Shown in pieces: positions 6,502 to 58,806 of a DNA stretch of 64,000 nt (the stretch's first letter is position 1; each line of letters opens with the position of its first letter). This DNA is from Aquimarina sp. RZ0. GTDB lineage: Bacteria > Bacteroidota > Bacteroidia > Flavobacteriales > Flavobacteriaceae. The position numbers and the translations under genes were made by a program. The notes beneath the pieces were generated by a model. It saw nothing but the letters and a program-made list of their open reading frames with translations. It was not told the origin of the DNA and did not search any database. The stretch spans positions 36,421 to 100,420 of the forward strand of contig NZ_VTZU01000016.1 of NCBI RefSeq assembly GCF_008370685.1, read 5' to 3'.

Positions 6502-6662
6502 TACGATTTGTGATTAAAAAATTCGTATAAATTCATTGAATTATTTTTTCTTTATGCAAGGCAAAAAAATCAAGCATAGCTATAGCTACGGTTTATTTTT
6601 TAAACGAAGTAGAAAGGAAAAAGAAACGATGAATATGCGAAATTTTTAGTTATAAATCGTAT
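6502..6662. repeat. Family-1 palindromic element (termini ATACGATTT), divergent copy
   Basis: This 161-bp element starts ATACGATTTGTG and ends with the complement ATAAATCGTAT, so its ends are an imperfect inverted repeat of about 25-30 bp. The interior core at 6573-6595 (AGCATAGCTATAGCTACGG) recurs in other families. It sits between the DUF4374 and PepSY genes. Both flanks carry AATA, a possible but low-complexity target duplication. Confidence 0.75.
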
Positions 6663-6674
6663 AATACTAATTGT

Positions 6675-6902
6675 TGTTTGAATTTACTCGATAATCGAGA
6701 TTTAAATGCTCCGAGGCTTGCCTCGAAATCAAAATGTTTTTTTCAATAAATGCCCCGTGGGCTTGCCCCGAGGTAGTTTAAATGAAAAGCAAGATTTTTT
6801 TATCTCGGTGAATAAGAAAAATCAATCATAGCAAGGTTACGGTTTGTTTTTATGCTGAAGCTGAGGTGAAAAAAGAACATTTTATTCCAGTAAATTCAAA
6901 CA
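6675..6902. repeat. Family-4 element with perfect 14-bp terminal inverted repeats, carrying a nested hairpin module
   Basis: The ends TGTTTGAATTTACT and AGTAAATTCAAACA are perfect inverted repeats 228 bp apart. The left part contains a family-2 hairpin module (6686-6780). The right part has a core-like segment at 6824-6850 (CATAGCAAGGTTACGGTTTG) like those in the other elements. It fills the gap before the PepSY gene. Solitary ends occur at 35266 and 41387. Confidence 0.75.
6686..6780. repeat. Family-2 hairpin module (CTCGATAATCGAG ... GGTAGTTTA)
   Basis: Three small hairpins follow each other: CTCGAT-A-ATCGAG, CGAGGC-TT-GCCTCG and GGGC-TT-GCCC, separated by AT-rich spacers. The same arrangement recurs at 9945 and 52496, and decayed at 53101. 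G+C is well above the surrounding DNA. Confidence 0.75.
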
Positions 6903-7003
6903 GTAAATGGTATAAGTAGCGTACTGTTTTTAGTTGGTTTATTGAGTTTTAACATTCAAGGAATAAGATTTTTATAGATACTTTTTTTTATTAATGACCT
7001 GAT

Positions 7004-8176
7004 ATGACAGATAAAACAGAAAAGAAAAATAGACGTAAAACAATTCTTAAAATTCATCGAATACTTGGGTTAATTACAGGTGCGGTGCTTTTTATTGTTT
7101 CGGTTACAGGATGTCTTTGGGTTTTTAAAGAAGAAATCGAAAGCTTTTATGATGATTATAAATATGTAATTCCGCAAGAACAAGATTTTGTAAGTTCTTC
7201 TGAAGTAAAAAGGATTGCAGAAAGTATCATTCCTGATAGAGCTATTCACGGGGTGATCTACGGAAAACCAAATGAAGCGATAGAGGTGGTTTTTTATGAA
7301 GCAGAACCAGAGGTGTTTTATCATAGCGTTTTCTTAAACCCATATACGGGCAAATTTATTAAGAGCTTGGATAATAATTCGGGCTTCTTTGGTTTTATAC
7401 TAAAAGGGCATATAGGGCTATGGTTGCCAGAAGCAATTGGTTCCAGAATCGTATCTTATTCAGTCCTACTTTTTTTAATCATATTAATGACAGGAGTATT
7501 GCTTTGGTGGCCCAAAAAAATGAAAAACTTAAAAGCTCGACTAAGATTCAAATGGAATGACAAAACCCGTTGGAAACGTAAGAATTTTGACTTGCATACC
7601 ATCATCGGTTTTTATGTATCCTCATTTGGTTTGATACTGGCTTTTACCGGATGTGTAATGGCTTTTAACTGGTTTTATTTTATCGCGTATAAGGCTACAG
7701 GAGGTGATAAAGCACCACAATTTATAGTTCCTAACAGTGCTAGTCCTTATACCGATATATCAGATAAGGTTCCGGCATATGACAAGCTGATTCCGATATT
7801 ATATAAAACTTATAAAACTGCAAAAAGTTTTGAATTACATTATCCAGAAAATGATACGACATCAATTCTTGTTGAGGTGAGTAATTCTGACGGATTATAT
7901 TACAATATGGATTATCTTTTCTTTGATCAGAATACACTACAAGAGATCGAGACGACCAGTATCTATGGTAAATATAAAGATGCAAAATTTGCAGATAAAG
8001 TAATCCGGATGAACTATGATATCCATATAGGAGCTATAGGTGGTATTGCCGGAAAAGTAATTGCTTTTTTAGTAAGTTTTCTTTGTGCTTCACTACCAGT
8101 AAGTGGTGTTTTGCTTTGGTATGGCAGGAAATATAAGCGTATTAGAACCAATAAACTTAGTTTAATAAGTTCATAG
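7004..8176 (+). CDS. PepSY-associated TM helix protein (siderophore/iron utilisation)
   Basis: A 390-residue inner-membrane protein. A basic N-terminus leads into TM1 (about 16-38, IHRILGLITGAVLFIVSVTGCLWVF), a large periplasmic region, TM2 (about 148-166), TM3 (about 200-226, IIGFYVSSFGLILAFTGCVMAF) and a C-terminal TM (about 345-372) ending in RKYKR. PepSY_TM proteins are linked to reductive iron release from imported siderophores, as proposed for FoxB, FsrB and XusC. It follows the receptor and DUF4374 genes on the same strand, but 670 bp of repeats separate it, so it may have its own promoter. Its convergent neighbour is a lipoprotein at 8294. Confidence 0.85.
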   Translation: MTDKTEKKNRRKTILKIHRILGLITGAVLFIVSVTGCLWVFKEEIESFYDDYKYVIPQEQDFVSSSEVKRIAESIIPDRAIHGVIYGKPNEAIEVVFYEAEPEVFYHSVFLNPYTGKFIKSLDNNSGFFGFILKGHIGLWLPEAIGSRIVSYSVLLFLIILMTGVLLWWPKKMKNLKARLRFKWNDKTRWKRKNFDLHTIIGFYVSSFGLILAFTGCVMAFNWFYFIAYKATGGDKAPQFIVPNSASPYTDISDKVPAYDKLIPILYKTYKTAKSFELHYPENDTTSILVEVSNSDGLYYNMDYLFFDQNTLQEIETTSIYGKYKDAKFADKVIRMNYDIHIGAIGGIAGKVIAFLVSFLCASLPVSGVLLWYGRKYKRIRTNKLSLISS

Positions 8177-8293
8177 CTATATTTTACAGAATTCATAGTA
8201 TTGATGCACATAGTCAGGATGAAGTAATCCGGATATAAAACTAAAACACTAATGAGAGTGCATTATAAACAAAAATATGGAAATCAATAAGCA

Positions 8294-9163
8294 CTACTCA
8301 AGTGTATATTTGTATAATTTCCCTTTTCTATTGTTCCTTTTTTCATCAACTATAAAAACTGAATTCTCGTCGTTAAAACATATTCCTTCTTTCTGAGAAA
8401 AGTGGTTAAGTTTTATTTTTTTAATAGTCCCCTGAAATACATCATCACCTTTGAAATCTGTTAATAGAAAAATTTTATTATAAGTAAGAAGAACTATTTT
8501 ATTACCTCTTGTATTAATCGCTGCACTGCTTATAAAACAATCATTGGGATCATTACCTATTTTGAACGAAGTAATCAATTTTGCTACCTGTTTACCCGGT
8601 TGAGCTAAAACTTTGTATAGTTTAGTTTCTCCCTTAAATTTACTACTTCTGTTCTTAGTGAATAGAAAAAAGCTTCCGTTTTTATAGATAAAAGCCTCAA
8701 CATCAAAATTTCTATTCTTCTTTTTTGGAGGGAATTCTTTTTGATCTTCCAGGCTAAACTGAATTTTATGAGATTCTATTTTTTCAGAATCAATTCCCGA
8801 AATTTTATAAATAGTGAGATCCTTCCGTTTGTTATCATTATTACCAAAATCCCCTATGTATATATTACCTTGATTATCAAATGTTAAATCTTCCCAGTCA
8901 ATATTTTTAGCATTTGGAATTTTAAACTCTTTTACAATCTCTCCTTCTTCATTTATTTTAAAAAGAGTGTTGTCATTTCCAGAATCATTAATTGCATATA
9001 TAAAAGCAGTACCAGATATTTTGGTAATGCCAGAGATTTCTTTTAACCTATTTGATAAAACATTAATCTGTAAAAGATCAGTTTTTTCCTTTTTTTGACA
9101 ACTAACCGATATAGATGCGATTAATAAAAGTAATAATATTTTTGATTTTAATGGTAACGTCAA
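8294..9163 (-). CDS. Lipoprotein with beta-propeller-like sequence, function unknown
   Basis: A 289-residue protein with a lipoprotein signal (lipobox SVSC, Cys22). Repeating patterns such as ISGITKISGTAFIYAINDSGN, NIDWEDLTFDNQGNIYIGDFGNND and FDVEAFIYKNGSFFLFTKN look like propeller blades of the SMP-30/SdiA-regulated or esterase-like phytase type. Catalytic residues cannot be assigned. It is monocistronic, convergent with the PepSY gene, and followed upstream by a 200-bp AT-rich gap. Envelope location is supported; enzymatic role is not. Confidence 0.6.
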   Translation of the reverse strand: MTLPLKSKILLLLLIASISVSCQKKEKTDLLQINVLSNRLKEISGITKISGTAFIYAINDSGNDNTLFKINEEGEIVKEFKIPNAKNIDWEDLTFDNQGNIYIGDFGNNDNKRKDLTIYKISGIDSEKIESHKIQFSLEDQKEFPPKKKNRNFDVEAFIYKNGSFFLFTKNRSSKFKGETKLYKVLAQPGKQVAKLITSFKIGNDPNDCFISSAAINTRGNKIVLLTYNKIFLLTDFKGDDVFQGTIKKIKLNHFSQKEGICFNDENSVFIVDEKRNNRKGKLYKYTLE

Positions 9164-9377
9164 TTTTTTAGTTTTTTTATTTCAGACTTCGAGTATCTGA
9201 TTTATTTTTCTAATTCTCAAAATAGGTAGTCTGTTAAGTAGGTTTAGCCTTCTTGTTGTTTCTCTATGTAAATTGTAATAGTTTCAATCTATGTCTACTT
9301 TTTTTAGTATTGGATGCAAAAATACTATAGTTTATTTTTGCCCTATGAAGTTACAATAGTTATAGAGAATATTAGAA

Positions 9378-9932
9378 TTAATCTAATCGATTTATGATTT
9401 CCTTAAGAATAAAATTGTAGTATTCAGTTGTATGAGGAACATACCTGGTAGCCAATAGATCATCCGTAAGATCAGCTTTAAAATCGGTTATTGGTATACG
9501 TTTGACAGCTGCAACTTCTTCTTCTTGAAGCGTAAGTTCTTCTATGGCAGTGTCGAATTTTGAAACATATATATGATTAATCTCATTGTCAAAAAAGTTT
9601 GGTTTTGGCTGCTTTTTAGATACGTATGTTCCTATAAAAATTAGTTCTTCTTCAGAAAGAGATACTCCTATTTCTTCTTCAATTTCTCTGATAGCAGAAT
9701 TTTTGGGCGTCTCACCAGCAGCTATATGTCCGGCAACGGATATATCCCAAAGATTAGGAAACGTATCCTTATTATGAGCACGCTTTTGTAAAAGAATATT
9801 TCCGTCTACAGTATACAACCAAACATGAACACTTGCATGAAATAATCCTAATCGATGCGCATCCGCTTTTAATCTTATTTCTCCAGTCAGAAGACCATTT
9901 TCATCTAATATATCAATAAATTCATCTGTCAT
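9378..9932 (-). CDS. Nudix hydrolase, IPP-isomerase-like clade
   Basis: A 184-residue protein with a complete Nudix box at residues 68-90: G68, E74, then REIEEEIGV with R82, E83, E86 and E87, fitting GX5EX7REUXEEXGU. The N-terminus (MTDEFIDILDENG..TGEIRLKADAHRLGLFHASVHVWL) is typical of the Nudix group related to isopentenyl-diphosphate isomerase (YfcD-like). Substrate cannot be predicted: nucleoside diphosphate derivatives are likely, and the paired Cys/Glu of true IPP isomerase are not evident. A single gene, with a family-2 repeat starting right behind its start codon. Confidence 0.85.
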   Translation of the reverse strand: MTDEFIDILDENGLLTGEIRLKADAHRLGLFHASVHVWLYTVDGNILLQKRAHNKDTFPNLWDISVAGHIAAGETPKNSAIREIEEEIGVSLSEEELIFIGTYVSKKQPKPNFFDNEINHIYVSKFDTAIEELTLQEEEVAAVKRIPITDFKADLTDDLLATRYVPHTTEYYNFILKEIINRLD

Positions 9933-9944
9933 AAATACTGTATT

Positions 9945-10036
9945 ACTCGATAATCGAGATTAAAATACTCCGGCTTGCCTCGAAATCAAATTTCTTTTTC
10001 AATAAATGCCTCGTGGGCTTGCTCCGATATAGTTTA
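9945..10036. repeat. Family-2 hairpin module, second copy
   Basis: It begins ACTCGATAATCGAG and ends ATAGTTTA. It matches 6686-6780 with small deletions (the CTCCGG version of the second hairpin) and a weaker last hairpin. It lies immediately upstream of the Nudix gene's start codon, so it may be in its 5' leader. Confidence 0.7.
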
Positions 10037-10088
10037 TTTTTTAAAAATAATATTAAAAAATGAACTAAAATATTACTTTTTAGTAAAT

Positions 10089-10152
10089 GAACTCATCTTG
10101 ACTTTTTATTTTTAACCAAAAATGAGTTGAAATTTGACCAGATGAGTGCAGG
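10089..10152. repeat. Truncated family-3 element (one end only)
   Basis: It begins GAACTCATCTTGACTTTTTA and for about 60 bp follows the reverse complement of the right end of the 53358-53516 element, with scattered mismatches. The other terminus is missing. The remainder of 9933-10295 is AT-rich with no coding sign. Confidence 0.6.
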
Positions 10153-10295
10153 TACTTTAATTCTTAAAGTAATATATTTAACAAATGATCATTGTATACC
10201 AAATGGATTTTATTGTAGCACATTGAAACATTTATTTAGTATTATTTTAATTTAAAAATTACATTAGTAATAGATAGCATTATAAAATCAACAAA

Positions 10296-10559
10296 ATGAC
10301 AGAAAAGCAAAAAATAGCGAATGCATACTGGAAAGAAAATATAAAATACCTTTTTATATTACTATCAATTTGGTTCGTAGTTTCATATGGTGCAGGTATT
10401 TTGTTTAAAGATTGGTTAAATCACATTCGGTTAGGAGGTTTCCGATTAGGATTTTGGTTTGCACAACAAGGTGCTATCTATACATTTGTAATTTTAATTT
10501 TTATCTATGTGCGGTTGATGAACAAATTAGATAAGAAATATGGATATGATAGAGAATAA
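10296..10559 (+). CDS. DUF4212 protein, small subunit of sodium:solute symporter
   Basis: An 87-residue protein with two transmembrane helices (about 22-42 and 58-80) and a conserved YWKENIKYLFILLSIWFVVSYGAGILF start, characteristic of DUF4212. These proteins are always found just before a large SSS-family symporter, as here with a 20-bp gap. It most likely assists assembly or function of that transporter in the inner membrane. Confidence 0.92.
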   Translation: MTEKQKIANAYWKENIKYLFILLSIWFVVSYGAGILFKDWLNHIRLGGFRLGFWFAQQGAIYTFVILIFIYVRLMNKLDKKYGYDRE

Positions 10560-10579
10560 ATCATTTTAATATAACAAGA

Positions 10580-12370
10580 ATGAGTGTACAAATTTGGACA
10601 TATCTATTAGTTGGAATCACTTTTGCCGTATATATTGGTATTGCTATCTGGTCTAGGGCGGGGTCAACAAAAGAATTCTATGTTGCCGGAGGTGGAGTAT
10701 CTCCATTAGCAAACGGGATGGCAACTGCTGCTGATTGGATGAGTGCTGCTTCTTTTATTTCTATGGCAGGTATTATTGCTTTTGACGGGTATGACGGAGC
10801 AGTTTATCTAATGGGATGGACAGGAGGCTATGTATTGCTAGCTTTATTGTTAGCTCCATATCTCAGAAAATTTGGAAAATTTACAGTTCCTGATTTTATC
10901 GGAGATCGCTATTATTCTAAAACTGCCAGATCAGTAGCAGTATTTTGTGCGCTTCTGGTTTCATTTACATATGTAGCAGGTCAAATGAGAGGTGTAGGCA
11001 TCGTTTTTTCCCGGTTCTTAGAAGTAGAGATTAATACAGGTGTTCTTATAGGAATGATTATCGTACTGTTTTATGCTGTTCTCGGTGGTATGAAAGGAAT
11101 TACCTATACGCAGGTAGCTCAGTATTGTGTATTGATTTTTGCTTTTATGGTTCCCGCAATATTTATTTCTATCCAGATGACCGGAAACCCAATTCCGCAG
11201 TTAGGATTCGGTGATACTGTAGCGGATGGCTCTGGAACGTATCTTTTGGATAAATTGGATGGACTCAGTGTAGCACTTGGATTTGATGCTTATACCGACG
11301 GGTCTAAAACCATGTTAGATGTTTTTACAATTACCTTAGCTTTGATGGTAGGAACAGCAGGATTGCCTCACGTTATTGTTCGTTTTTTTACTGTAAAACG
11401 AGTAAAAGACGCTCGTAAATCAGCAGGGTATGCATTGCTACTAATCGCAATTTTATATACCACAGCACCAGCAGTAGCAGTTTTTGCAAAGACAAACCTT
11501 ATTGAATCGGTACATAATAAAGAGTATCAAGAACTGCCCTCGTGGTTTAAAAATTGGGAGCATACAGGTCTGTTAGGTTGGATTGATAAAAATGGAGATG
11601 GTAAGGTACAGTATGCAAAGGGACATGTAGTACAAGGAAATAAAAATAAACCTGTTTTTGAGAAAGAAAAAAGAGGGCAAAAAGGAGAACGAATTATTAG
11701 TAATGTAAATCCAGCTTCAGAAAATGAACTGTTTGTAGATCGAGATATTATGGTATTGGCTAATCCAGAAATAGCGAATTTACCAAATTGGGTAATTGCT
11801 CTGGTCGCGGCAGGAGGATTAGCAGCTGCGCTTTCTACAGCAGCCGGACTGTTATTGGTGATTTCATCTTCGGTATCTCATGATTTAATTAAAAAGATGA
11901 TCAAGCCTGATATTTCTGAAAAAGGAGAATTGATGGCAGCGCGTATATCGGCAGTAGCGGCTGTGTGCGTTGCAGGATATTTTGGGATTAATCCGCCAGG
12001 ATTTGTGGCCGCAGTAGTTGCCCTGGCTTTTGGATTAGCAGCTGCCTCTTTTTTTCCTGCAATTGTACTAGGAATTTTTTATAAAAGGATGAATAAGGAA
12101 GGAGCGATCTCGGGAATGATCGTAGGAATTATATGTATGCTTCTTTATATGGTCAAATATAAATTAGGATGGTTTGATGACGTAGTTCCTTCCTCAAATG
12201 AATGGTGGTTCGGTATTTCTCCAGAAGGTTTTGGGGCAATTGCAATGAGTATTAATTTCATAATATCATTGGTAGTTTGTCAATTCACAGCAAAACCACC
12301 CAAAGAAGTACAAGAAATAGTAGAAAACATTAGAATACCAGGCAATGCGGGAAGACCTACACACGAATGA
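10580..12370 (+). CDS. Sodium:solute symporter (VC_2705 subfamily), probable acetate/short-chain acid transporter
   Basis: A 596-residue SSS-family transporter with about 13 TM helices. ATAADWMSAASFISMAGIIAFDGYDG and the Na-site-type segment SYVAGQMRGVG-like (FTYVAGQMRGVG) are recognisable. It is longer than ActP-type members mainly through a hydrophilic loop at about 310-390, containing DKNGDGKVQYAK (336-347), an EF-hand-like loop. Sitting between DUF4212 and acs, it probably imports acetate or a similar carboxylate for activation to acetyl-CoA. The substrate is inferred from context only. Confidence 0.88.
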   Translation: MSVQIWTYLLVGITFAVYIGIAIWSRAGSTKEFYVAGGGVSPLANGMATAADWMSAASFISMAGIIAFDGYDGAVYLMGWTGGYVLLALLLAPYLRKFGKFTVPDFIGDRYYSKTARSVAVFCALLVSFTYVAGQMRGVGIVFSRFLEVEINTGVLIGMIIVLFYAVLGGMKGITYTQVAQYCVLIFAFMVPAIFISIQMTGNPIPQLGFGDTVADGSGTYLLDKLDGLSVALGFDAYTDGSKTMLDVFTITLALMVGTAGLPHVIVRFFTVKRVKDARKSAGYALLLIAILYTTAPAVAVFAKTNLIESVHNKEYQELPSWFKNWEHTGLLGWIDKNGDGKVQYAKGHVVQGNKNKPVFEKEKRGQKGERIISNVNPASENELFVDRDIMVLANPEIANLPNWVIALVAAGGLAAALSTAAGLLLVISSSVSHDLIKKMIKPDISEKGELMAARISAVAAVCVAGYFGINPPGFVAAVVALAFGLAAASFFPAIVLGIFYKRMNKEGAISGMIVGIICMLLYMVKYKLGWFDDVVPSSNEWWFGISPEGFGAIAMSINFIISLVVCQFTAKPPKEVQEIVENIRIPGNAGRPTHE

Positions 12371-12434
12371 TTAGCTATAAAAATTGATACACTATACTTT
12401 ATAAATTTTTCAACTAAAAATAGGATTAACCATA

Positions 12435-14342: not shown

Positions 14343-14442
14343 TAGTAATAAAACCATAATTGAACCTTGACTTTATTCATAAAATATACTTCTGGAAGAC
14401 AGACAGTATTTAGATTTCTATAATAAGCTTTTAAAAAGGAGC

Positions 14443-14480
14443 ATAAAATAAAACCTCACGATTATGAGGTTTTATTTTAT
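14443..14480. terminator. Strong hairpin terminator after acs
   Basis: A 16-bp perfect stem (ATAAAATAAAACCTCA and its complement) encloses the 6-nt loop CGATTA. The outer A/T pairs supply U-tracts in both directions. The right end overlaps the first two bases of the family-1 element. Confidence 0.8.
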
Positions 14481-14641
14481 ACGATTTACGGGTGAGAATT
14501 TCGTAAAAATAATGGCAAGGATTTTTCGCTAGATTGATGAATTAAATTAAAGAATAGCCATAGCTATTGTTTCATTTTATGAAGAAAATATAGTAGAAAA
14601 AGAATGTCATTAGATGCGAAATTTTTATTCGTAAATCGTAT
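14479..14641. repeat. Family-1 palindromic element, copy nearly identical to 50552-50714
   Basis: A 163-bp element starting ATACGATTTACG and ending CGTAAATCGTAT: a perfect 12-bp terminal inverted repeat, extended imperfectly to about 25 bp. By eye it differs from the 50552 copy at one position (T/C in ATGAAT-AAATT). The core is at 14554-14572. The rest of 14642-14781 holds only a small hairpin (CATTCAAA/TTTGAATG at 14663-14687), perhaps the terminator of the M42 peptidase gene. Confidence 0.85.
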
Positions 14642-14781
14642 TATTTCTATTTTATAATTACCCATTCAAATTTACTTTTTTTGAATGCTGAAGAAAAAAC
14701 ACTTTTTATGTAAGTAATTCTAAATTAGTAATGGTATTAGAAAAAATTTAAGATTTTGTTTTAGATGTTGATTTAGGAATA

Positions 14782-19020: not shown

Positions 19021-19095
19021 AAATATGTTATTTATTTGCCCGAAAATTACGGAATTTTAAAATTACGAATACTACCGCCCTCAAATGATATTATC

Positions 19096-19256
19096 GAAGT
19101 GGTTTACACTTTTTTGATTCAGGCGAAAAATAGTATTTTTTTAATCAATTGAAGTGTTTTTTGTACTTCACAGCAGCGTTACGAAGTAAGAAAAAGACAA
19201 GAATTGAGTGAAAAAAGACATTTTTATAGCGAATTGAAAAAAGTTTAAATCACTTC
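19096..19256. repeat. Family-6 palindromic element (termini GAAGTG-TTTA-ACTTTTTT)
   Basis: Its ends are 20-bp imperfect inverted repeats: GAAGTGGTTTACACTTTTTT on the left, and the complement of GAAGTGATTTAAACTTTTTT on the right, with two mismatches. The total is 161 bp, like families 1, 3 and 5. The core-like segment is at 19169-19190 (CACAGCAGCGTTACGAAGTA). Confidence 0.65.
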
Positions 19257-19429
19257 ATCTACTAAAATTATTTCTTTTTGTCCCATATTTCAAAATAAAA
19301 CACGTCAATAGTGCTGCGACCTCTTAATTTTCTTTATCGACTGAATCAAAAATAATTAAATTCAGTTAACAGTACTATTGTCTGATGCTTGTATAAAAAG
19401 ATATTTATAAGCATTGTTTTTTCTAATTT

Positions 19430-34985: not shown

Positions 34986-35146
34986 ATACCATTTTTGCTT
35001 TAAAATTACCCAAATAAAATACAGTTGCTTTTTCTTTAGGCAAAAAAGAAAAGTTCAGTATAGCCTAAGTGACAGTTAATTTTTATTTTGAAACATAAGG
35101 GGAAAAGAACAAATTTTAGTGGTTGATTTTAAGGTAGAAATGGTAT
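34986..35146. repeat. Family-5 palindromic element (termini ATACCATTT-T-C-TTAAAAT)
   Basis: The left end ATACCATTTTTGCTTTAAAA pairs with the right end, the complement of ATACCATTTCTACCTTAAAA, with a few mismatches over about 20 bp. Total 161 bp. The core-like segment is at 35056-35084 (AGTATAGCCTAAGTGACAG). A single related end (ATGGTATTAGA) occurs near 14732. Confidence 0.65.
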
Positions 35147-49766: not shown

Positions 49767-49769
49767 AAG

Positions 49770-50552
49770 ATGCAAGATTTAGATTCACAAATATTAGTAA
49801 GTAAAATAGATACGATTGTAATAATTAGCCTTAATCGACTACCAGTCAATGGTTATTATCTGGATTTCCTAGAACGATTGAGTAGTATAATAACAGAAGC
49901 TAGTCTTGATGATACTATTAAAGTTATTTTAATAAAAAGTACTTCTGAAAAGTTTTTTTGTGCAGGAGCAGATATCAAAATATTTGCGTCAAATACACAA
50001 ATACAAAACAATGAAATGGTAAAGACAGCAAGAAAAGTAAGTGCTGCTATTTGCAACAGTAAAAAAATTGTAGTTGCTGCTATAAAAGGACATGTGTTGG
50101 GTGGCGGATTAGAAATATGTATGGCTTGTGACATCAGGCTCGCCGCCAAAGGAGATTATTTGATAGGACTCCCGGAAGTAAAATTGGGATTGATGCCGGG
50201 TAATGGAGGTACCCCGAGGTTAATAGACCTGATCGGAGCAAGTAGAGCTATGGAGTTGCTTGTCACTGGAAACACTATAACTCCTCAAAAAGCATATGAT
50301 TATGGGCTGTTTAATCAATTGTACGAAGAAATAAGCTTTGAGAATGAGGTGGAAATTTATGTAGATAAAATAGCAAAGGGAGCAGGAAAGGCTATGAGTG
50401 CCATAAAAGAATATGTAGGACGACATAAAGGAATGAGTCTGCAGGAATCTTTAATTTTTGAAACAGAATGTGTGGATATTTTGTATAATACACCAGATGC
50501 AAAAGAAGGATTTAATGCTTTTGTAGAAAAACGTACTCCAGAATTTGAATAA
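49770..50552 (+). CDS. Enoyl-CoA hydratase/isomerase
   Basis: A 260-residue crotonase. FFCAGADIKIF (about 62-72) and HVLGGGLEICMACD (108-121) form the oxyanion hole. E115 and E136 (GLPEVKLGLMPGNGGTPRL) correspond to the two catalytic glutamates of enoyl-CoA hydratase, so hydration of a 2-enoyl-CoA is plausible. It follows the second CoA-transferase by 3 bp. The last base of its stop codon is the first base of a family-1 repeat element. Confidence 0.9.
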   Translation: MQDLDSQILVSKIDTIVIISLNRLPVNGYYLDFLERLSSIITEASLDDTIKVILIKSTSEKFFCAGADIKIFASNTQIQNNEMVKTARKVSAAICNSKKIVVAAIKGHVLGGGLEICMACDIRLAAKGDYLIGLPEVKLGLMPGNGGTPRLIDLIGASRAMELLVTGNTITPQKAYDYGLFNQLYEEISFENEVEIYVDKIAKGAGKAMSAIKEYVGRHKGMSLQESLIFETECVDILYNTPDAKEGFNAFVEKRTPEFE

Positions 50553-50714
50553 TACGATTTACGGGTGAGAATTTCGTAAAAATAATGGCAAGGATTTTTC
50601 GCTAGATTGATGAATCAAATTAAAGAATAGCCATAGCTATTGTTTCATTTTATGAAGAAAATATAGTAGAAAAAGAATGTCATTAGATGCGAAATTTTTA
50701 TTCGTAAATCGTAT
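50552..50714. repeat. Family-1 palindromic element inside the catabolic operon
   Basis: A 163-bp copy with 12-bp perfect terminal inverted repeats (ATACGATTTACG), differing from 14479-14641 at one base by eye. It starts on the crotonase stop codon and ends 22 bp before the aldehyde dehydrogenase ATG, filling the whole gap. The core is at 50627-50640. Both flanks read AATA. Confidence 0.85.
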
Positions 50715-50736
50715 AATAACGTAAAACTTTAACAAA

Positions 50737-52194: not shown

Positions 52195-52311
52195 TAACCA
52201 AGTAGTGTTGAATTGGTTTCTATATATTTTGGCAAATAAAAACACAGCCTTGTTGTAAGAAAATAACAGCATATCTCAAATTTTTGAATGTTTTACACCA
52301 TTTCTGTCTTA

Positions 52312-52465
52312 GAACTCATCTTGAGTAATGGTTTTTAACCGAAAAGTTAGGCTTTGGCACTACAATGAAGTAGTTTTTTTAGCATAACCATACGGTTAAA
52401 AAAACCAACAAATTAGCGTGCAAAATGTAAATTTTGTAGGTCAAAGCAATACTCAATATGAGTTC
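52312..52465. repeat. Family-3 palindromic element (termini GAACTCATCTTGA), copy 1
   Basis: A 154-bp element with GAACTCATCTTGAG at the left and its near complement CTCAATATGAGTTC at the right. The core is at 52381-52398 (AGCATAACCATACGGTTA), flanked by GGTTTTTAACC-type hairpin arms. It resembles 58647-58806 along its whole length. It lies after the aldehyde dehydrogenase; 52195-52311 shows nothing else. Confidence 0.8.
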
Positions 52466-52495
52466 ATGAAATTATATCTGTTATTTACGATGTTT

Positions 52496-52586
52496 ACTCG
52501 ATAATCGAGATTTAAATGCTCCGGGGCTTGCCTCGAAATCAAAATGTTTTTTTCAATAAATGCTCGGCTTGCCCCGAGGTAGTTTA
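52496..52586. repeat. Family-2 hairpin module, third copy
   Basis: It starts ACTCGATAATCGAG and ends TAGTTTA, nearly identical to 6686-6780 except for a small deletion in the third hairpin (CTCGGCTTGCCCCGAG). It is directly upstream of the AraC remnant. Confidence 0.75.
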
Positions 52587-52628
52587 TTTTAAAAATTCAC
52601 AGCCTGTAATCTGTCTTTCACAACATTT

Positions 52629-52982
52629 TTGATTTTTGGGACTACTTCTTTCATAATAAATGGAGATGATCGTATACAAAGTATTTTGAATTATATCGCT
52701 GAGAATTTTGATAAAAAAATATCGAATAAAACAATGGCTGATTTAGTTTTCTTAACTGAAATTTCTTTTTGTAAATTTTTCAAACGTAATTTTAATAAAT
52801 CATTTACTAATTATTTAAACGAGTTTCGTATCAGAAAATCCTGTCAGTTATTGCGACAAACAAATAAGAAGTTATTAGATATTGCAGAGGAATGTGGTTA
52901 TGAAAACATGTCTTTTTTTCATCGGCAGTTCAAAAAGTATATCAAGAAAACTCCTTCAGAGTATAGGATAAGTTTTTTATAA
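52629..52982 (+). pseudogene. AraC-family regulator remnant (C-terminal DNA-binding domain only)
   Basis: About 117 residues encode a full AraC double HTH: IQSILNYIAENFDKKISNKTMADLVFLTEISFCKFFKRNFNKSFTNYLNEFRIRKSCQLL and IAEECGYENMSFFHRQFKKYIKKTPSEYR. The N-terminal sensor half of a normal 280-300-residue regulator is absent. No ATG start or plausible leader is present, only a TTG. The 5' side abuts a family-2 module and repeats also lie downstream, so the gene was probably cut during repeat-mediated rearrangement. Expression as a short HTH protein cannot be excluded. Confidence 0.65.
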
Positions 52983-53100
52983 TTCTGGATTTCTATTCTT
53001 AAAACGAAGTCATCTCATCTCATCTCAATTTTAGTTAAACGAGTCATAAAACTCTAATGATATATACTTTTGGTTTTGAGGTTTGTTTTTATAGTACTTC

Positions 53101-53176
53101 TGATTTAAATACGTGTCTCGAAATCGAAATGGCTTTCTTGAGAAATGCTTTGTGGGCTTGCAACGAGGTCGTTTAT
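53101..53176. repeat. Decayed family-2 module
   Basis: GTCTCGAAATCGAAATGGCT, AGAAATGCTTTGTGGGCTTG and CGAGGTCGTTTATC follow the order of the intact modules, with many substitutions. The rest of 52983-53357 shows nothing else beyond short CTCAT repeats near 53013-53027. Confidence 0.5.
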
Positions 53177-53357
53177 CTTTTTTTTGCTGATACTTCAAAA
53201 TAGAAAGAAGCCCTAGATTGAATTTTCTTTTTTGTCAAAACAAGAATTACTAGCTTTTATTTGAGTATTTTCAGCATAGGATTGGGATTAATCTTGATAC
53301 TATTACTAATTTAGATCTTTTAAGGTTACAACTAAAATTGTCAAGATTTTTTCCATT

Positions 53358-53516
53358 GAACTCATCTTGATTTTTCTATTTCATAAAAAATGGCTAAAAT
53401 TCGTCCATATTTCATTACTTTTTTGGTCTGTAGTGCCGCTATAGACTATACAAAGTGCATTATCTGTTCATATTTCACTTCATTTTCGGTTAAAAATGAA
53501 AAGTCAAGATGAGTTC
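53358..53516. repeat. Family-3 palindromic element, variant subtype
   Basis: A 159-bp element with perfect 13-bp terminal inverted repeats GAACTCATCTTGA/TCAAGATGAGTTC. Its interior differs from the 52312 and 58647 copies and includes GTGCCGCTATAGACTATACA. The truncated copy at 10089 and the mini-element at 40383 derive from this subtype. Confidence 0.8.
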
Positions 53517-53695
53517 ATTAAAAAAGAGAAGTTTTAAGATACTTTAAGCAAATTATTTTTCTTGGAAAAGGATGATTACTAATAATTTTAATTTTTTAAT
53601 CAGGATTTGTAGATTACTACAAAAAAGAATACAAATTAGTTGTTAAAACGTTTCGTTGTGTTTGTAATTATGCAATAAAATCTTACCAAAAACCT

Positions 53696-53703
53696 TACAT
53701 TTG
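53696..53703 (+). promoter_or_regulatory. Candidate -7 box (TACATTTG) of ccsBA
   Basis: A full match to TAnnTTTG, 19 bp before the ATG at 53723; no clear TTG at the standard distance. Confidence 0.4.
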
Positions 53704-53722
53704 CCAAGCAAAAAAAAATAGT

Positions 53723-56700
53723 ATGCAAAAGAAGTTGATGAGTATTTTATTTTCTACAAGATTGATGGCAATTTTATTTCTCGTTTTTGCAACTTCTATG
53801 GGGATAGGTACTTTTTTAGAAGATGCGCACGGCACTACAGCTGCGAGAATATGGATTTATAATACCTGGTGGTTTGAGGCAATTATGGCATTTTTTATGG
53901 TTAATTTCTGTGGTAATATTGTTAGATACAGACTTTACAAAAAAGACAAATGGGCTACCTTATTGTTACACCTCTCCTTTATATTAATTCTTTTGGGAGC
54001 ATTTGTTACCAGATATATTAGTTATGAAGGAGTCATGCCTATACGTGAAGGTGAAACTACAGCTACCTTTCTTTCAGAAAAAACATACATGACTATTTTT
54101 TTAGATGGTGAAATTGATGGGCAACCTCGCAGAAGAATCGTCTCAGAAGCTCTAGAATTGGCAGAAAATACAGCTAATGATTTTACAATAAATACGGATT
54201 ATAACAAGCAGGAAGTAATCATTGAGTATAAAGATTATATTCAAGGTGCAGAAATGGGGTTGGTAGAAACTGAAAATGGAGAAAATTATCTTAAAATTGT
54301 AGAAGCAGGTGATGGTAATAGACACGATCATTATCTGAAAGAAGGGGAAATATCCAACATTCACAATATTCTGGTAAGTTTTAATTCACCAACCAAAGGA
54401 GCAATTAATATTACTTATAAAAAAGGTGAGTATTATATAGAATCCCCTTTTGAAGGTTCTTTCTTGAGAATGGCAGATCAATTACAAGGTGTTGTGATTA
54501 AAGATAGTATCCAACCATTAATGTTGCGATCCTTATACCAGACTGCAGGCATGCAATTTGTTATTCCTGATCCAGTCACTCGGGGTGTTTATGATATAAA
54601 ACCAATCGAAATTAAAGCTAAAGGGCAGCAAGATGCCCTGATAGTAGAGGTTTCTACATCTGGAGAAACTAAGGAAGTGAAATTATTAGGAGGAAAAGGT
54701 TTTGCTAATGATATGCAGAAAATTTCTATTGGCGGATTAGATATGTATTTTAATTATGGGTCGAAACGATTAGAGCTACCTTTTTCATTAAAACTGAATG
54801 ATTTTATAGCAGAAAAACAGCCGGGAACAGCTAAAGTCTATAAATCATATATGAGTAAAGTTGATATTATAGAGGATGCTAAAACACCAAAACCTTATGA
54901 TATTTATATGAATCATGTACTGGATCATAAGGGATATAGGTTTTTTCAGGCGTCTTTTGATCCAGATGAAAAAGGAACAGTACTATCTGTAAGCCATGAT
55001 TATTGGGGAACAACAATAACATATGCAGGGTATATGTTACTGTATTTGGGATTGATGCTTATTTTGTTTACCAAAGGATCGAGGTTTAAGGATCTTGAGC
55101 AAATGCTGAATAAAGTAAAAGTTAAAAAGAAAGCATTAACAACGGCAGTAATACTTTGTATTTCTACAATTTCCTTAGCTCAGCAGCAGCCATCTCACGT
55201 AAATCATTTACAAACATTACCAAGCAAAGCACAATTAGATTCTATTATAATAGCTAATGCAGTATCCGAAGCACATGCAGAAAAGTTTGGTAGTATTGTA
55301 ATTCAGGATGAACGTGGTCGAATGAAGCCTGTTAATACTTTTTCTTCAGAATTACTGCGTAAATTGAGTAAAAAAGATACATATGAGGGATTAACAGCTG
55401 ATCAGGTATTTGTATCTATGGTAGAAAATCCATTTGTTTGGTACAGTGTACCGATTATCGAAATAGAGCGTAAGAATGATAGTATTCGTAAAATATTAGG
55501 AGTGCCCAAAACAGAACGAAGGGTTTCTCTTATCGATCTTGTAGAACCGGATGGTACTTATAAGCTGACTCCATATTTAGAAGAGGCGAGTAGTACCAGC
55601 ACCCCAAGTAAGTTTGAAAAAGATTTTTTGAAAACTCATGAAAAGTTTTACCTGTTAAACCAGGCTTTGGGAGGAGGAATTCTGCGAATTTTTCCAGTTC
55701 CTGAGGATGAAAATAATATCTGGGTTTCTGTACCGCAACTCAATGAATATAAATTTACAGGCATGGATTCTGTATATACCAGACAAATCATACCGATCTA
55801 TCGACAAGCATTACAAGAAGCCAGAAAATCCGGAGATTATAGTAAACCTGATCAATATATAGAAAGTATTAAAAGTTTTCAGAAAAAATTCGGTAATGAA
55901 GTGTTGCCAACGGATAAAAAGATTAAAGCGGAAATTGCTTTAAATAAATATGATATTTTTAAGACACTGTTTGGATACTATTTTTTATTCGGTATTTTTC
56001 TAATGGTATTTGTTGTCTTTAGAATATTTAAAGAATCTAAAATAATCATATGGTTGATTAATGGTACCATTGGATCGGTTATTTTGCTTTTTATGGTTCA
56101 TACAGCTGGTTTGATTATTCGCTGGTATGTATCTGGTCACGCACCCTGGAGCGATGCTTATGAATCTATGATATATGTCGCCTGGGCAACTATGGCATTA
56201 GGATTAGCTTTTGGTAGAAAAAGTAATCTTTCTATTGCTGCTACTGCTTTTGTAGCCGGAATCATATTAGCTTTTGCGCATGAAAACTGGACTGATCCTG
56301 CAATTGCCAATCTACAACCCGTATTGGATTCTTATTGGGTATTGATACATGTATCTATCATTGTGGGAAGTTATGGTCCTTTCTTTATGGGGGCTATACT
56401 GGGAGTTCTTTCATTAGTGCTAATGATTTTGACCACAAAGTCTAATAAGAAACGAATGGATCTCAATATAAGGGAAATTACTATTATTAATGAGATGGCA
56501 TTAACCATTGGTTTGGTTATGTTAACTATTGGTAATTTTTTGGGAGGAATGTGGGCAAACGAAAGTTGGGGTCGTTATTGGGGATGGGATCCAAAAGAGA
56601 CCTGGGCTTTAGTGAGTATTATGGTCTATGCTTTTGTCATACATATGAGACTGGTTCCTGGTCTGAGAAGTAGGTGGTTTTTTAATTTGATGTCAATTTT

Positions 56701-56878
56701 GGCAGTTGGATCTATACTAATGACCTATTTTGGAGTAAATTTCTATCTCAAAGGATTACACTCGTATGCAAGTGGTGATCAGGTGGTAACTCCATCATCC
56801 GTTTATTATAGTATATTGGTATTGGTACTCCTTGGATCTTTTTCTTATTGGAGATATACAATTCATTATAAAAAATGA
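53723..56878 (+). CDS. ccsBA: Fused cytochrome c biogenesis protein CcsB-CcsA (system II)
   Basis: A 1051-residue inner-membrane protein combining a ResB/CcsB part (about 1-470, with TM helices and a large periplasmic domain) and a CcsA/ResC part (about 740-1051). The heme-handling WWD-type segment WGRYWGWDPKETWALVSIMVYA is at about 950-970. HTAGLIIRWYVSGHAPWSDAYESM and its His residues belong to the CcsA heme pathway. A central periplasmic region (about 480-740) links them. The protein exports heme and ligates it to apocytochrome c thiols. Fused forms are common in Bacteroidota and epsilonproteobacteria. Monocistronic. Confidence 0.93.
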   Translation: MQKKLMSILFSTRLMAILFLVFATSMGIGTFLEDAHGTTAARIWIYNTWWFEAIMAFFMVNFCGNIVRYRLYKKDKWATLLLHLSFILILLGAFVTRYISYEGVMPIREGETTATFLSEKTYMTIFLDGEIDGQPRRRIVSEALELAENTANDFTINTDYNKQEVIIEYKDYIQGAEMGLVETENGENYLKIVEAGDGNRHDHYLKEGEISNIHNILVSFNSPTKGAINITYKKGEYYIESPFEGSFLRMADQLQGVVIKDSIQPLMLRSLYQTAGMQFVIPDPVTRGVYDIKPIEIKAKGQQDALIVEVSTSGETKEVKLLGGKGFANDMQKISIGGLDMYFNYGSKRLELPFSLKLNDFIAEKQPGTAKVYKSYMSKVDIIEDAKTPKPYDIYMNHVLDHKGYRFFQASFDPDEKGTVLSVSHDYWGTTITYAGYMLLYLGLMLILFTKGSRFKDLEQMLNKVKVKKKALTTAVILCISTISLAQQQPSHVNHLQTLPSKAQLDSIIIANAVSEAHAEKFGSIVIQDERGRMKPVNTFSSELLRKLSKKDTYEGLTADQVFVSMVENPFVWYSVPIIEIERKNDSIRKILGVPKTERRVSLIDLVEPDGTYKLTPYLEEASSTSTPSKFEKDFLKTHEKFYLLNQALGGGILRIFPVPEDENNIWVSVPQLNEYKFTGMDSVYTRQIIPIYRQALQEARKSGDYSKPDQYIESIKSFQKKFGNEVLPTDKKIKAEIALNKYDIFKTLFGYYFLFGIFLMVFVVFRIFKESKIIIWLINGTIGSVILLFMVHTAGLIIRWYVSGHAPWSDAYESMIYVAWATMALGLAFGRKSNLSIAATAFVAGIILAFAHENWTDPAIANLQPVLDSYWVLIHVSIIVGSYGPFFMGAILGVLSLVLMILTTKSNKKRMDLNIREITIINEMALTIGLVMLTIGNFLGGMWANESWGRYWGWDPKETWALVSIMVYAFVIHMRLVPGLRSRWFFNLMSILAVGSILMTYFGVNFYLKGLHSYASGDQVVTPSSVYYSILVLVLLGSFSYWRYTIHYKK

Positions 56879-57051
56879 AAATTTTATAGTTGATTGTTTG
56901 TGATTACTTTATTATCAAAAATACCTATACAAAAACTATACAATGCTATTAAAATGATCATTTGTAGTATATTTTTATAATCTAATAGACTTTTGAAGTA
57001 AATAATATTCATACTTTTAACAATTAATATAAAACTGTTTAAATCTTAAAT

Positions 57052-58632
57052 ATGGGCATTATTTCTTTTGTAGCGTTTACACTTTTGGTAGCGGTTGTAT
57101 CGTATCTGGCTACCCGAAAAACAGACGAAAATTCATCAGATGGTTATTTTCTTGGCGGTCGAAGTCTCACCGCAGTAGTAATCGCAGGATCATTATTATT
57201 AACAAATCTTTCTACTGAGCAAATAGTAGGCCTCAATGGTTCTGCATATACAGATGGTATATTGGTGATGGCATGGGAAACTCTTGCTGCAATTGCTATG
57301 GTTATTACGGCCGTATATTTATTGCCAAAATACCTTAAAGGAGGTATTAGTACGATCCCTACATATCTGGAAAGAAGATTTGATGCTTCTACAAAAGCGA
57401 TGATTTCTGGATTATTTCTTACGGGATATGCCGTAGTATTATTACCTATTGTACTATACTCAGGTTCTCTTGCGATTAGTACAATGTTTAATATACCAGA
57501 AATGTTGGGCGTATCCGAATGGACTTCTTTATGGATATGTATATGGGGTATCGGTATTATTGGATCGATCTATGCCATTTTTGGAGGCCTGAAAGCGGTG
57601 GCGGTTTCTGATACTATTAATGCTGTTGGGTTATTGGTAGGAGGATTATTGATACCTGTGTTTGGTTTAATGGCGATTGGAGATGGTAGTGTATTAACCG
57701 GTCTTAATACTTTAACGACAGAACATCCAGAAAAATTCAATGCAATAGGAGGTGAGGATTCTTCTATACCATTTGCGACAATATTTACAGGGATGATGCT
57801 AGTACAGCTGTTTTATTGGGGTACTAATCAGGCTATAATACAGAGAGCATTGGGAGCAAAAAACCTGGTAGAAGGGCAAAAAGGACTTTTGATAGCTGCT
57901 TTTATTAAAATCCTGGGACCTATTATAGTCGTATTGCCTGGAATAATAGCTTATCATATGTTTAAAGGAGAATTAGAAGTTCCGGATCAGTCATATCCAA
58001 GACTTGTAAGTGAAGTATTACCAACGCCATTAGTCGGTTTTTTTGCTGCTGTTTTATTTGGTGCTATTTTGAGTTCTTTCAATAGTGCTTTGAATAGTTC
58101 AGTGACGTTGTTTGGTATTGATATATATAAACAATTCTTTAATACCGAAGCACCAGAAAGAAAAGTAGTATCTGTCGGGAAAAAGTTTGGTATCATCCTT
58201 GCAATTTTTTCAATGACAATTGCTCCGTTTTTATATTTTGCATCAGACGGTCTTTTTGGATACCTGCAGACGGTAAACGGATGTTATAGTATTCCTATTT
58301 TATCTATTATTGTGGTAGGTTTTCTTACCAAAAGAGTACCTGCTATTGCGGCAAAAGCAGGAGTTATTTTTGGTTTTGTAATTTATGTAATCTATGTGTT
58401 GATGGAAAAAACATTTGAAGTAGAAGGATTACCTCATTTCTTACATGTACAGGCAATTACTTTTGTTCTTTCTATAACGATTATGTTGGTTATAGGTAAG
58501 TTAAAGCCAAGAGAAACAGATTATGTGCAAGCATATACTAAAGAAGTAGATGTAACCCCCTGGAAATATACAAAGATAGTGGGTGCGGCTATATGTTTAA
58601 TTGTAGTTTCTACATATCTCTACTTTAATTAA
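57052..58632 (+). CDS. Solute:sodium symporter (SSS/SLC5 family)
   Basis: A 526-residue transporter with about 13-14 TM helices. GYFLGGRSLTAVVIAGSLLLTNLSTEQIVGLNGSAY is the conserved N-terminal signature, FGGLKAVAVSDTINAVGLLVGG the TM5/6 segment, and AVLFGAILSSFNSALNSSVTLFGIDIYKQF the Na2-site helix with its Ser residues. It resembles the YidK/SglT sugar-type branch more than ActP. Substrate unknown; monocistronic with a family-3 element and a terminator behind it. Confidence 0.9.
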   Translation: MGIISFVAFTLLVAVVSYLATRKTDENSSDGYFLGGRSLTAVVIAGSLLLTNLSTEQIVGLNGSAYTDGILVMAWETLAAIAMVITAVYLLPKYLKGGISTIPTYLERRFDASTKAMISGLFLTGYAVVLLPIVLYSGSLAISTMFNIPEMLGVSEWTSLWICIWGIGIIGSIYAIFGGLKAVAVSDTINAVGLLVGGLLIPVFGLMAIGDGSVLTGLNTLTTEHPEKFNAIGGEDSSIPFATIFTGMMLVQLFYWGTNQAIIQRALGAKNLVEGQKGLLIAAFIKILGPIIVVLPGIIAYHMFKGELEVPDQSYPRLVSEVLPTPLVGFFAAVLFGAILSSFNSALNSSVTLFGIDIYKQFFNTEAPERKVVSVGKKFGIILAIFSMTIAPFLYFASDGLFGYLQTVNGCYSIPILSIIVVGFLTKRVPAIAAKAGVIFGFVIYVIYVLMEKTFEVEGLPHFLHVQAITFVLSITIMLVIGKLKPRETDYVQAYTKEVDVTPWKYTKIVGAAICLIVVSTYLYFN

Positions 58633-58646
58633 GATAGAATAAAAAT

Positions 58647-58806
58647 GAACTCATCTTGAGTAGTGGTTTTCAACCGAAAAGTTTGGCTTTTGTGCTATAA
58701 TGAAGTAGGTTTTTTTCAGCATAGTCATAGCTATGGTTTAAAAACCAACAAAATTAGCGTTGAAAATGTAAATTTGATAGATCAAAGCATGACTCAAGAT
58801 GAGTTC
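58647..58806. repeat. Family-3 palindromic element, copy 3
   Basis: A 160-bp element with GAACTCATCTTGAG at the left and CTCAAGATGAGTTC at the right, a perfect 14-bp terminal inverted repeat. The core at 58718-58740 reads AGCATAGTCATAGCTATGG. It is alignable with 52312-52465 throughout. Confidence 0.85.

What the first reader, a model, noticed from the sequence alone, without database searches (positions are those of the whole stretch)
6502..58806. Several families of ~160-bp palindromic elements share length and an interior core but not their ends
Elements at 6502, 14479, 50552 (ends ATACGATTT), 52312, 53358, 58647 (ends GAACTCATCTTGA), 34986 (ends ATACCATTT) and 19096 (ends GAAGTG) are each 154-163 bp long with terminal inverted repeats that are unrelated between families. 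In most of them, at a similar internal position, a core such as AGCATAGCTATAGCTACGG (6573), ATAGCCATAGCTATTG (14554), AGCATAGTCATAGCTATGG (58718) or AGTATAGCCTAAGTGACAG (35056) is followed by a T-rich and then an A/G-rich tract with GAAAAAGAA. Constant size and core with exchangeable ends suggests one architecture mobilised by, or folding for, different partners. All lie between genes. Possible explanations are non-autonomous transposable elements, REP-type sequences moved by RAYT transposases, or structured RNA ends.
Basis: partly seen in the sequence, partly recalled or inferred. Interest (0 to 1): 0.8.

Follow-up and report, generated by a model that had tools for sequence, protein, structure and literature searches.

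The report
Palindromic mini-transposons with swappable ends
These gene-less, roughly 160-base palindromes are mini-transposons that sit in hundreds of copies in a bacterium that is likely an Aquimarina species; across its family the same central motif recurs between different ends, so one body has likely been refitted several times for different transposases, which would make it a rare case of a genome parasite that changes its carrier.

Summary
The eight listed elements are 154-161 bp whole-element palindromes; seven carry an exact 3-bp target duplication, and empty sites exist for family A elsewhere in the genome. They are MITEs. Family A (window 6502-6661) has about 300 nearly identical copies by extrapolation and core count. 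Six of nine families found in 838 kb share a homologous core at the element centre although their ends differ (TACC/TACG, GAACTCATC, GAAGTGRTTTAAAC). A covariance model of the core matches 30 of 37 genomes of the genus (own included) and 18 of 79 other genera of the family, there also between further ends, most of them seen in a single element (GAGACTGTTT, GGGTTTGATAT, ATGTTANTCAT). The GAAGTG ends are the ends of 928-bp IS5-family elements in the same genome; a core-less family (F) has the ends of an 884-bp IS5 element. So: a MITE body that likely switched transposases by changing its terminal repeats. RAYT/REP and transcript readings are not supported. No transposase was found for the abundant TACC/TACG ends or for GAACTC ends; how ends are exchanged and what the core does are inferred. 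New variant of a known kind.

The parts
6502..6661 (+). Family A MITE, 160 bp, TACGATTT...AAATCGTA, TSD TAA (6499-6501 and 6662-6664); core AGCATAGC-TATA-GCTACGG at 6573
   Evidence: 302 exact cores of this pattern in the genome, a few of them possibly from C2 copies
6665..6912 (+).
   Evidence: R1 91.3 bits, E 4.5e-15 (this copy was among the model's 22 sequences)
6688..6785 (.). REP-like insert with repeats resembling those around an IS200-type gene in L314 (CTCGATAATCGAG ... GTGGGCTTGCCCCGAGGTAG), nested in the H element; borders approximate, read by eye
   Evidence: L314 gene typed
14480..14640 (+). Family B MITE, 161 bp, TACGATTT ends, TSD TTA
19096..19256 (+). Family E MITE, 161 bp, GAAGTGGTTTA...TAAATCACTTC, TSD ATC; ends are those of 928-bp IS5-family elements (L071, L072)
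19070..19390 (-). Older TACC-type core-bearing element into which E inserted (borders approximate, by eye)
   Evidence: R1 match 19265-19365 minus, E 0.004; paralogous empty site in L060 4664-4771, 76%
34987..35145 (+). Family D MITE, 159 bp, TACCATTT...AAATGGTA, TSD TTA
50553..50713 (+). Family B MITE, 161 bp, TSD TAA
52312..52465 (+). Family C2 MITE, 154 bp, GAACTCATC ends, no exact TSD
53358..53516 (+). Family C3 MITE, 159 bp, same GAACTCATCTTGA ends as C2 but a different interior (reverse-strand match to E), TSD ATT; not found by model R1
58647..58806 (+). Family C2 MITE, 160 bp, GAACTCATC ends, TSD AAT; core AGCATAG-TCAT-AGCTATGG
10089..10150 (-). Fragment of a C3 element
   Evidence: E 7.7e-6

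Best explanation
They are non-autonomous mini-transposons (MITEs): whole-element palindromes of about 160 bp with 3-bp target duplications and, for family A, empty sites, which share one central motif but are bounded by different terminal repeats, one of which equals the ends of IS5-family elements in the same genome, so that they are likely moved in trans by such transposases and the body has likely changed ends several times. SHOWN: size, palindromy, target duplications, empty sites, near-identity of the sampled A copies, core homology across end types, presence in the genus and in other genera, the IS5 match of the GAAG ends, co-variation of the two arms in the TACC family, and a B element with an A-type end on one side only. 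INFERRED: transposition by IS5-type enzymes (only the terminal 18-20 bp are shared with the IS); exchange of ends by a one-sided chimera followed by copying of one arm onto the other within the hairpin, which would make the new ends symmetrical; retention of the central CATAGC-N3/4-GYTAYGG motif and of the 160-bp length because the centre would help any transposase bring the two ends of so short a DNA together (bend or host-factor site), or because it is the hairpin apex.
For: 3-bp TSD: in 838 kb A 33 of 36, B 5 of 5, F 5 of 5, D 3 of 4, H 1 of 4, C2 6 of 9, E 2 of 4, C3 1 of 3, G 0 of 3; among elements selected for an exact TSD, TNA in A 79 of 80, TACC 32 of 32, B 11 of 11, F 9 of 9. Empty sites: A in L083 against L085, 98.6% over 140 nt without gap; A in L314 against L321, 99.2% over 118 nt. 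Ends: GAAG MITE ends match 928-bp IS5 elements at 15-18 of the first 18 nt and at 1-4 of the next 7 (IS5 by NCBIfam: longer frame of L072 below the whole-protein cut-off; the F element above it). Core: TACC profile to C2 12.2 bits, GAAG profile to C2 9.2 and to H 9.1, each 0 of 500 palindrome-preserving shuffles; TACC, GAAC and GAAG ends 44-45% alike, shuffled median 42%. Same ends, other interior: C2 against C3. Range: 30 of 37 genomes of the genus, 19 of 80 of the family, own included in both, further end types there. Arms: 46 TACC elements, 24 of 37 pairs with double changes, 195 cells, maximum 86 in 200 permutations. One-sided chimera L197. Core-less 51-53 bp forms with TACC-type ends, two with TSD as read from the sequence.
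Against: No autonomous element with TACC/TACG ends was found: 306 ends examined in the DNA held, 17 distinct unpaired end sequences, none the end of an IS; two possible distant partners are ends of neighbouring A elements and a third is no exact end; no IS-size pair, by eye and at up to 2 mismatches, in the fully listed genomes G301, G304, G308, G317, G323; none at DDE_Tnp_1, DDE_Tnp_1_2, DDE_Tnp_4, rve or Y1_Tnp loci of the own genome. Only part of the own genome was held. None for GAACTC either; an IS701-like element has only similar ends, AACTCACCTTACGCA. Weak or missing core links: TACC profile to E 3.6 bits, 3 of 500; GAAC profile to E 6.0, 1 of 500, to D 5.4, 1 of 500, to H 5 of 500; GAAG profile to A no match, to D 31 of 500. 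Not all ends are unrelated: L348 resembles F (70%) and TACG (67%), L345 resembles GAAG (80%), above the 99% mark of shuffles, 61%. GAAC and GAAG families show little arm co-variation, 8 cells each against permutation maxima of 8 and 6. Outside the genus, elements were chosen by the core model, so core conservation and part of the centrality there are selected. No transposition was observed.
Confidence: 0.67

Rival explanations
1. Ordinary independent MITEs: each end type arose separately from its own IS, and the shared core and length reflect convergence of A/T-rich palindromes of a favoured size.
For: F and G families have the same length (about 157-165 bp) and palindromy without a forward core, so size alone needs no common descent; E to TACC similarity is weak, and the GAAG profile does not find A.
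Against: TACC-C2, GAAG-C2 and GAAG-H matches survive palindrome-preserving shuffles (the first two also dinucleotide shuffles); an exact 23-nt core pattern has 302 matches in the genome, 0 with the reversed pattern; the CATAGC-N-GYTAYGG centre occurs between seven or more end types in 14 genera, though several of these ends were seen once and the elements were found by the core model.
Confidence: 0.15
2. The core is the functional part: a structured RNA, terminator or regulatory hairpin kept by the host, with transposition only as a means of dispersal.
For: Centre strongly conserved across genera while ends vary; compensatory changes in the stem; all classified copies intergenic, 20 of 78 between convergent genes that hold 17% of intergenic bases; one terminator-like site in the A core, minus strand, 0.4 expected; F (4 of 4) and C3 (3 of 3) lie on the strand of their tandem neighbours.
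Against: No significant strand preference of the core-bearing families relative to flanking tandem genes (22 to 14, p 0.24), no Rfam match, no excess of promoter-like sites around A (3 found, 3.5 expected), burst of nearly identical copies in one genome, insertions into transposase genes.
Confidence: 0.11
3. REP/RAYT-type elements moved by a Y1 (tyrosine) transposase.
For: 15 Y1_Tnp matches in the genome, TACG-type ends near 12 of these 15; REP-like repeats present.
Against: 3-bp target duplications and DDE-type ends; the two Y1 proteins classified are IS200/IS605; for two Y1 loci with an A copy, L314 and L317, empty-site relatives show that A inserted there, and the Y1 element of L314 itself lies inside a C2 element.
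Confidence: 0.03

Closest known systems
Prokaryotic MITEs in general (review PMC10969869, passages read), with Correia and ERIC elements named there
   Same: Short, gene-less, terminal inverted repeats, direct repeats, high copy number, intergenic; a predicted fold of the whole element is shown there for QMITE2
   Different: The passages read describe no set of families that share a centre while carrying different terminal repeats
MITEs of Porphyromonas gingivalis, e.g. BrickBuilt, MITE239, MITE464 (PMC4596501, passages read)
   Same: Bacteroidota; terminal repeats equal or nearly equal to those of IS5-family elements, no transposase remnant inside BrickBuilt
   Different: In the passages read I saw no body shared between different end types
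MITECca01 of Cardinium (PMC9769881, passages read)
   Same: Bacteroidota; 169 copies, mostly intergenic and inside other mobile elements
   Different: IS982-family parent, about 240 bp, one end type
MITEPsy1 of Pseudomonas syringae (PMC3189936, passages read)
   Same: Ends like an IS5-family element (ISPsy2), target duplication; its transposition was trapped by experiment, mobilisation by ISPsy2 held likely there
   Different: 100 nt, one end type, 4-bp target
TIMEs (PMC4133298, abstract read)
   Same: Non-autonomous miniature elements that form mosaics
   Different: Tn3-type 38-bp ends; ends are constant and the inside varies, the reverse of the present case
mPing/mPong of rice (PMC9921582, abstract read; PIF/Harbinger membership recalled)
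   Same: Chimeric elements were tested; inside as well as ends set mobility
   Different: Plant elements; swaps made in the laboratory
GTAG/CGTC-tagged REPs (PMC3733652, listing and start of abstract only)
   Same: Palindromic repeats in high copy number
   Different: 20-40 bp units; a REP-like repeat here is a separate insert

Membership tests
MITE | Terminal inverted repeats | tested here: met
MITE | Target site duplication of fixed length | tested here: met
   3 bp; A 33 of 36, B 5 of 5, F 5 of 5, but H 1 of 4, C3 1 of 3, G 0 of 3
MITE | No coding capacity, under 500 bp | tested here: met
   window elements 154-161 bp; 78 of 78 classified outside ORFs of 90 codons or more
MITE | Ends shared with an autonomous element | tested here: inconclusive
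   met for GAAG (L071, L072) and F (L074); no such element found for TACC/TACG and GAACTC; G not pursued beyond an end scan
MITE | Transposition in trans | not testable with these tools
   only empty sites
IS5 family derivative | Same ends and TSD as an IS5 element of the genome | tested here: inconclusive
   E and F yes (TSD of the IS copies read by eye); TACC/TACG and GAACTC no element found
IS5 family derivative | Interior left over from the IS (internal deletion) | tested here: not met
   similarity to the IS ends stops after about 18-20 bp (25 nt compared)
REP/RAYT (REPIN) | 20-40 bp hairpin with GTAG-type tag, no TSD | tested here: not met
   about 160 bp, 3-bp TSD; size and tag from the title and start of the abstract of PMC3733652, absence of TSD recalled
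REP/RAYT (REPIN) | Cognate RAYT gene flanked by the elements | tested here: inconclusive
   2 of 15 Y1 loci classified, both IS200/IS605; ends near 12 of 15, explained by insertion for two
Known structured RNA | Match to an Rfam family | tested here: not met
   0 matches at gathering scores in the window

The most novel reading that the evidence does not exclude
A carrier-switching genome parasite: one palindromic 160-bp body, older than the genus and spread through Flavobacteriaceae, has repeatedly replaced its terminal repeats to exploit one transposase family after another. Being a hairpin over its full length, it copies a newly acquired end from one arm onto the other, and it keeps a central motif that works with any of the transposases.
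Probability: 0.44. Interest if true: 0.78.

Novelty: new variant of a known kind. Interest (0 to 1): 0.63.

Why it matters
MITEs are normally defined by their ends and thought of as crippled copies of one parent IS; how they arise and persist after the parent dies is an old question. Here a conserved centre between different ends offers natural variants in which ends and body can be tested apart, and the palindrome gives a concrete, testable route (one arm templating the other) by which a parasite could change its carrier. Hundreds of nearly identical copies in one genome also make a recent burst that can be studied.

Tried and rejected
RAYT/REP, Rfam and transcript function: not supported, though one search shows one terminator-like site in the A core. 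A 2479-bp pair of H-like ends at C200 looked like an IS but holds several elements and no recognised transposase; its one long frame (393 codons) was not classified. L314, where GAACTC ends flank a Y1 gene, reads as a C2 element interrupted by an IS200-type insertion, not as a GAACTC-ended IS. IS701-like element as carrier of the GAACTC family: ends similar only; left as a weak lead. A strict inverted-repeat scan (18 nt, 16 matches) missed most elements and was replaced. Scan of viral contigs with a window protein: none. Literature: the listings of nine searches showed no report of these elements or of one core with several ends; the library holds open-licence papers only.
Full report
1. Observation. 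The eight listed elements were located, and their borders fixed by the target duplication. They are 154-161 bp long and fold largely as one hairpin (A, 6504-6663, as single-stranded DNA: z -4.6). A long-palindrome scan of 838 kb of the same genome (the window, the other 36 kb of its contig, and stretches of four more contigs) gave 30 palindromes of 30 bits or more in two contigs and none in a Markov control of these. It added families H, F and G to those of the window. Nine families resulted, without overlap between their hits: A 37 copies, B 6, D 5, H 5, C2 14, C3 6, E 6, F 5, G 4, fragments included; 79 are 130 bp or longer.

2. They are mobile elements. In that sample an exact 3-bp duplication flanks A 33 of 36, B 5 of 5, F 5 of 5, D 3 of 4, H 1 of 4, C2 6 of 9, E 2 of 4, C3 1 of 3 and G 0 of 3 copies with both ends recognised. 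Over all DNA then held, relatives included, elements selected for an exact duplication show TNA for A (79 of 80), TACC (32 of 32), B (11 of 11) and F (9 of 9), and mostly A/T-rich triplets without that rule for GAAC (30) and GAAG (11). Empty sites: A in the transposase gene of L083 against L085 (98.6% over 140 nt, no gap), A in L314 against L321 (99.2% over 118 nt), A in L317 against L320 (91%), A in L088 against L196 (88%), and E of the window against L060 (76%). Many other lines printed by this script are trivial overlaps with other copies and do not count; its output was cut.

3. Number and age. A 23-nt core pattern has 302 exact matches in the own genome, 12 in one genome of the same genus and none in the other 297 of 299 genomes of the family searched; the reversed pattern has none in the two. 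The pattern admits some C2 copies, but 37 A copies in 838 kb of 7.04 Mb also extrapolate to about 310. Of 36 full A copies in the sample 26 are identical to the window's copy over 159 nt; over 162 nt 24 are, and the other 12 are 98.8-99.4% identical. 78 of 78 classified elements lie between ORFs although ORFs cover 83.5%; 20 of 78 lie between convergent genes, which hold 17% of intergenic bases.

4. Same core, different ends. With 28 bp trimmed from each side, local alignments of consensus interiors exceed 1000 dinucleotide shuffles for A-B, A-D, A-H, A-C2, D-H and D-C2 (p 0.001), C2-E (0.002), B-C2 and H-E (0.008); 26 of 36 comparisons are not significant at 0.02, among them every one with C3 (C3-E 0.035, in reverse), and F-G match only in reverse (0.015). 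Profiles against palindrome-preserving shuffles: TACC profile to A 50.8 bits, B 26.0, C2 12.2; GAAC profile to A 9.0; GAAG profile to C2 9.2 and H 9.1, each 0 of 500. Weaker: TACC profile to E 3.6 bits, 3 of 500; GAAC profile to E 6.0 and D 5.4, 1 of 500 each, to B 1 of 500, to H 5 of 500. GAAG profile to A none, to D 31 of 500. In reverse: GAAG profile to C3 9.2 and to F 5.8, 0 of 500 each. G: no convincing match. TACC, GAAC and GAAG ends are 44-45% alike, shuffled median 42%. C2 and C3 have the same 13-bp ends and different interiors. So ends and interior have been combined in more than one way.

5. Spread. A covariance model of the interior, built from 22 copies of six families, matches 30 of 37 genomes of the genus at E 1e-3 and 19 of 80 genomes of the family, each from another genus, own included in both (stricter filters). 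Of 101 loci read in the genus, taken from the best-scoring listed matches, 43 are C2 with GAAC at both ends, 38 have TACC ends on both sides and 13 GAAG on both sides; seven gave mixed or uncertain end calls by this crude score. In other genera TACC ends prevail, often with TNA duplications, but the core also lies between GAAG ends (G019, G042), GAAC ends (G050), an end that reads like a blend of GAAC and GAAG (GAACTCATTTAAAC, G061), GAGACTGTTT (G006, TSD TAA), TATACTCAAA (G006), ATGTTANTCAT (G005) and GGGTTTGATAT (G042), the last five in one element each. In one search an exact 3-bp duplication was favoured by the score, so its 30 of 60 are not independent evidence. Of these 60 loci I kept 42 (150 bp or longer, with TSD or a fair inverted repeat), added six of the eleven loci and six consensus sequences: in these 54 the centre reads CATAGC-N-GYTAYGG with a spacer of 3 or 4 in 50, T at 54 of 54 and G at 53 of 54 of two positions, and its midpoint lies at 0.506 +- 0.011 of the length. 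As the elements were found by the model, core conservation and part of the centrality are selected; the variety of ends is not. Not all ends are strangers to each other: L348 is 70% like F and 67% like TACG, L345 80% like GAAG (shuffled 99% mark 61%).

6. Carriers. Two 928-bp elements with GAAGTGRTTTAAAC ends (L071, L072) carry a DDE transposase gene; 3-bp duplications at both are read. In L072 the frame is split in two; the longer part matches the IS5 family, below the whole-protein cut-off, the shorter matches nothing. The F ends belong to an 884-bp element with a 279-codon IS5-family gene. MITE and IS agree at 14-18 of the first 18 nt and at 1-4 of the next 7, so the MITEs are not simple internal deletions of these ISs. 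For TACC/TACG and GAACTC ends no carrier was found. The A burst therefore has an unknown mover; TNA duplications as in F would fit an IS5-type enzyme (inference).

7. How ends could change. (a) L197 is a B element with an A-type end on one side only. (b) In 46 TACC elements 24 of 37 stem pairs show double changes, 195 cells against at most 86 in 200 permutations and at most 43 when slid; 52 GAAC and 16 GAAG elements show 8 cells each, against permutation maxima of 8 and 6. (c) Across families A/T tracts flip between arms with pairing kept; 12 of 14 consensus pairs have a double change. (d) Core-less forms of 51-53 bp with the same ends, two with TSD as read from the sequence (G317 TTA, G324 TGA), show that the inside can be lost. 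I infer that a one-sided change is copied to the other arm through the hairpin. Selection for pairing would look the same in (b).

8. Role of the core. No significant strand preference (22 to 14), no Rfam family and no promoter excess speak against a transcript; one terminator-like site in the A core speaks for a closer look. A fixed motif at the middle of a DNA of fixed, very short length fits a site that helps the ends to meet; this is the weakest step.

9. Host. In one search the exact core was confined to the window's genus among 236. The genus is thus likely Aquimarina, not proven.

10. Known or not. The closest kinds are bacterial MITEs with IS5-type ends; in the passages read and abstracts I saw no family set with one body and several ends, and the listings of nine library searches showed none. 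Verdict: a real, large and unusual MITE superfamily; new variant of a known kind. On recounting I lowered confidence by 0.01 each for the statement and the novel case, because of the core comparisons that fail and of the ends that resemble each other.

Noticed in passing
window 6665-6912: A TACC-type element lies directly beside A, shares the TAA junction with it and is interrupted by a REP-like insert.
   Followed up: yes
L314 1179-2054: An IS200/IS605-type gene bounded by GGCTTGCCTCG / GTGGGCTTGCCCCGAGG repeats sits inside a C2 element and has itself an A element inserted: three nested layers. Such a repeat recurs in the window (6759), and CTCGATAATCGAG at 6687, 9946, 52497.
   Followed up: partly
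window 19070-19390: The E element sits inside an older TACC-type element of a further family (relatives L060 4707-4807, L040 15991-16090).
   Followed up: partly
Y1_Tnp loci L313-L327 and DDE loci L078-L093: A copies are conspicuously often in or beside transposase genes: TACG-type ends within about 1.5 kb at 12 of 15 Y1 loci (up to 2 mismatches). Tolerance of such sites and target preference were not separated.
   Followed up: partly
G317:C1 5621158-5621210, G304:C1 5273987-5274038, G324:C20 142628-142680: 51-53 bp core-less palindromes with TACC-type ends, two of them with TSD.
   Followed up: partly
L192 543-1717 (C254): IS701-like element whose ends AACTCACCTTACGCA resemble the GAACTCATCTTGA ends, with AGT on both sides as read from the sequence.
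   Followed up: partly
families F and G in the sample (C79:20968-21124, C189:208026-208190): Palindromic MITEs of the same length without a forward core, F with IS5 ends and TNA duplications; why the length is the same is unexplained.
   Followed up: no
window 6590-6575 (minus strand): A terminator-like stem-loop with a T tail lies in the A core; not tested for function.
   Followed up: no
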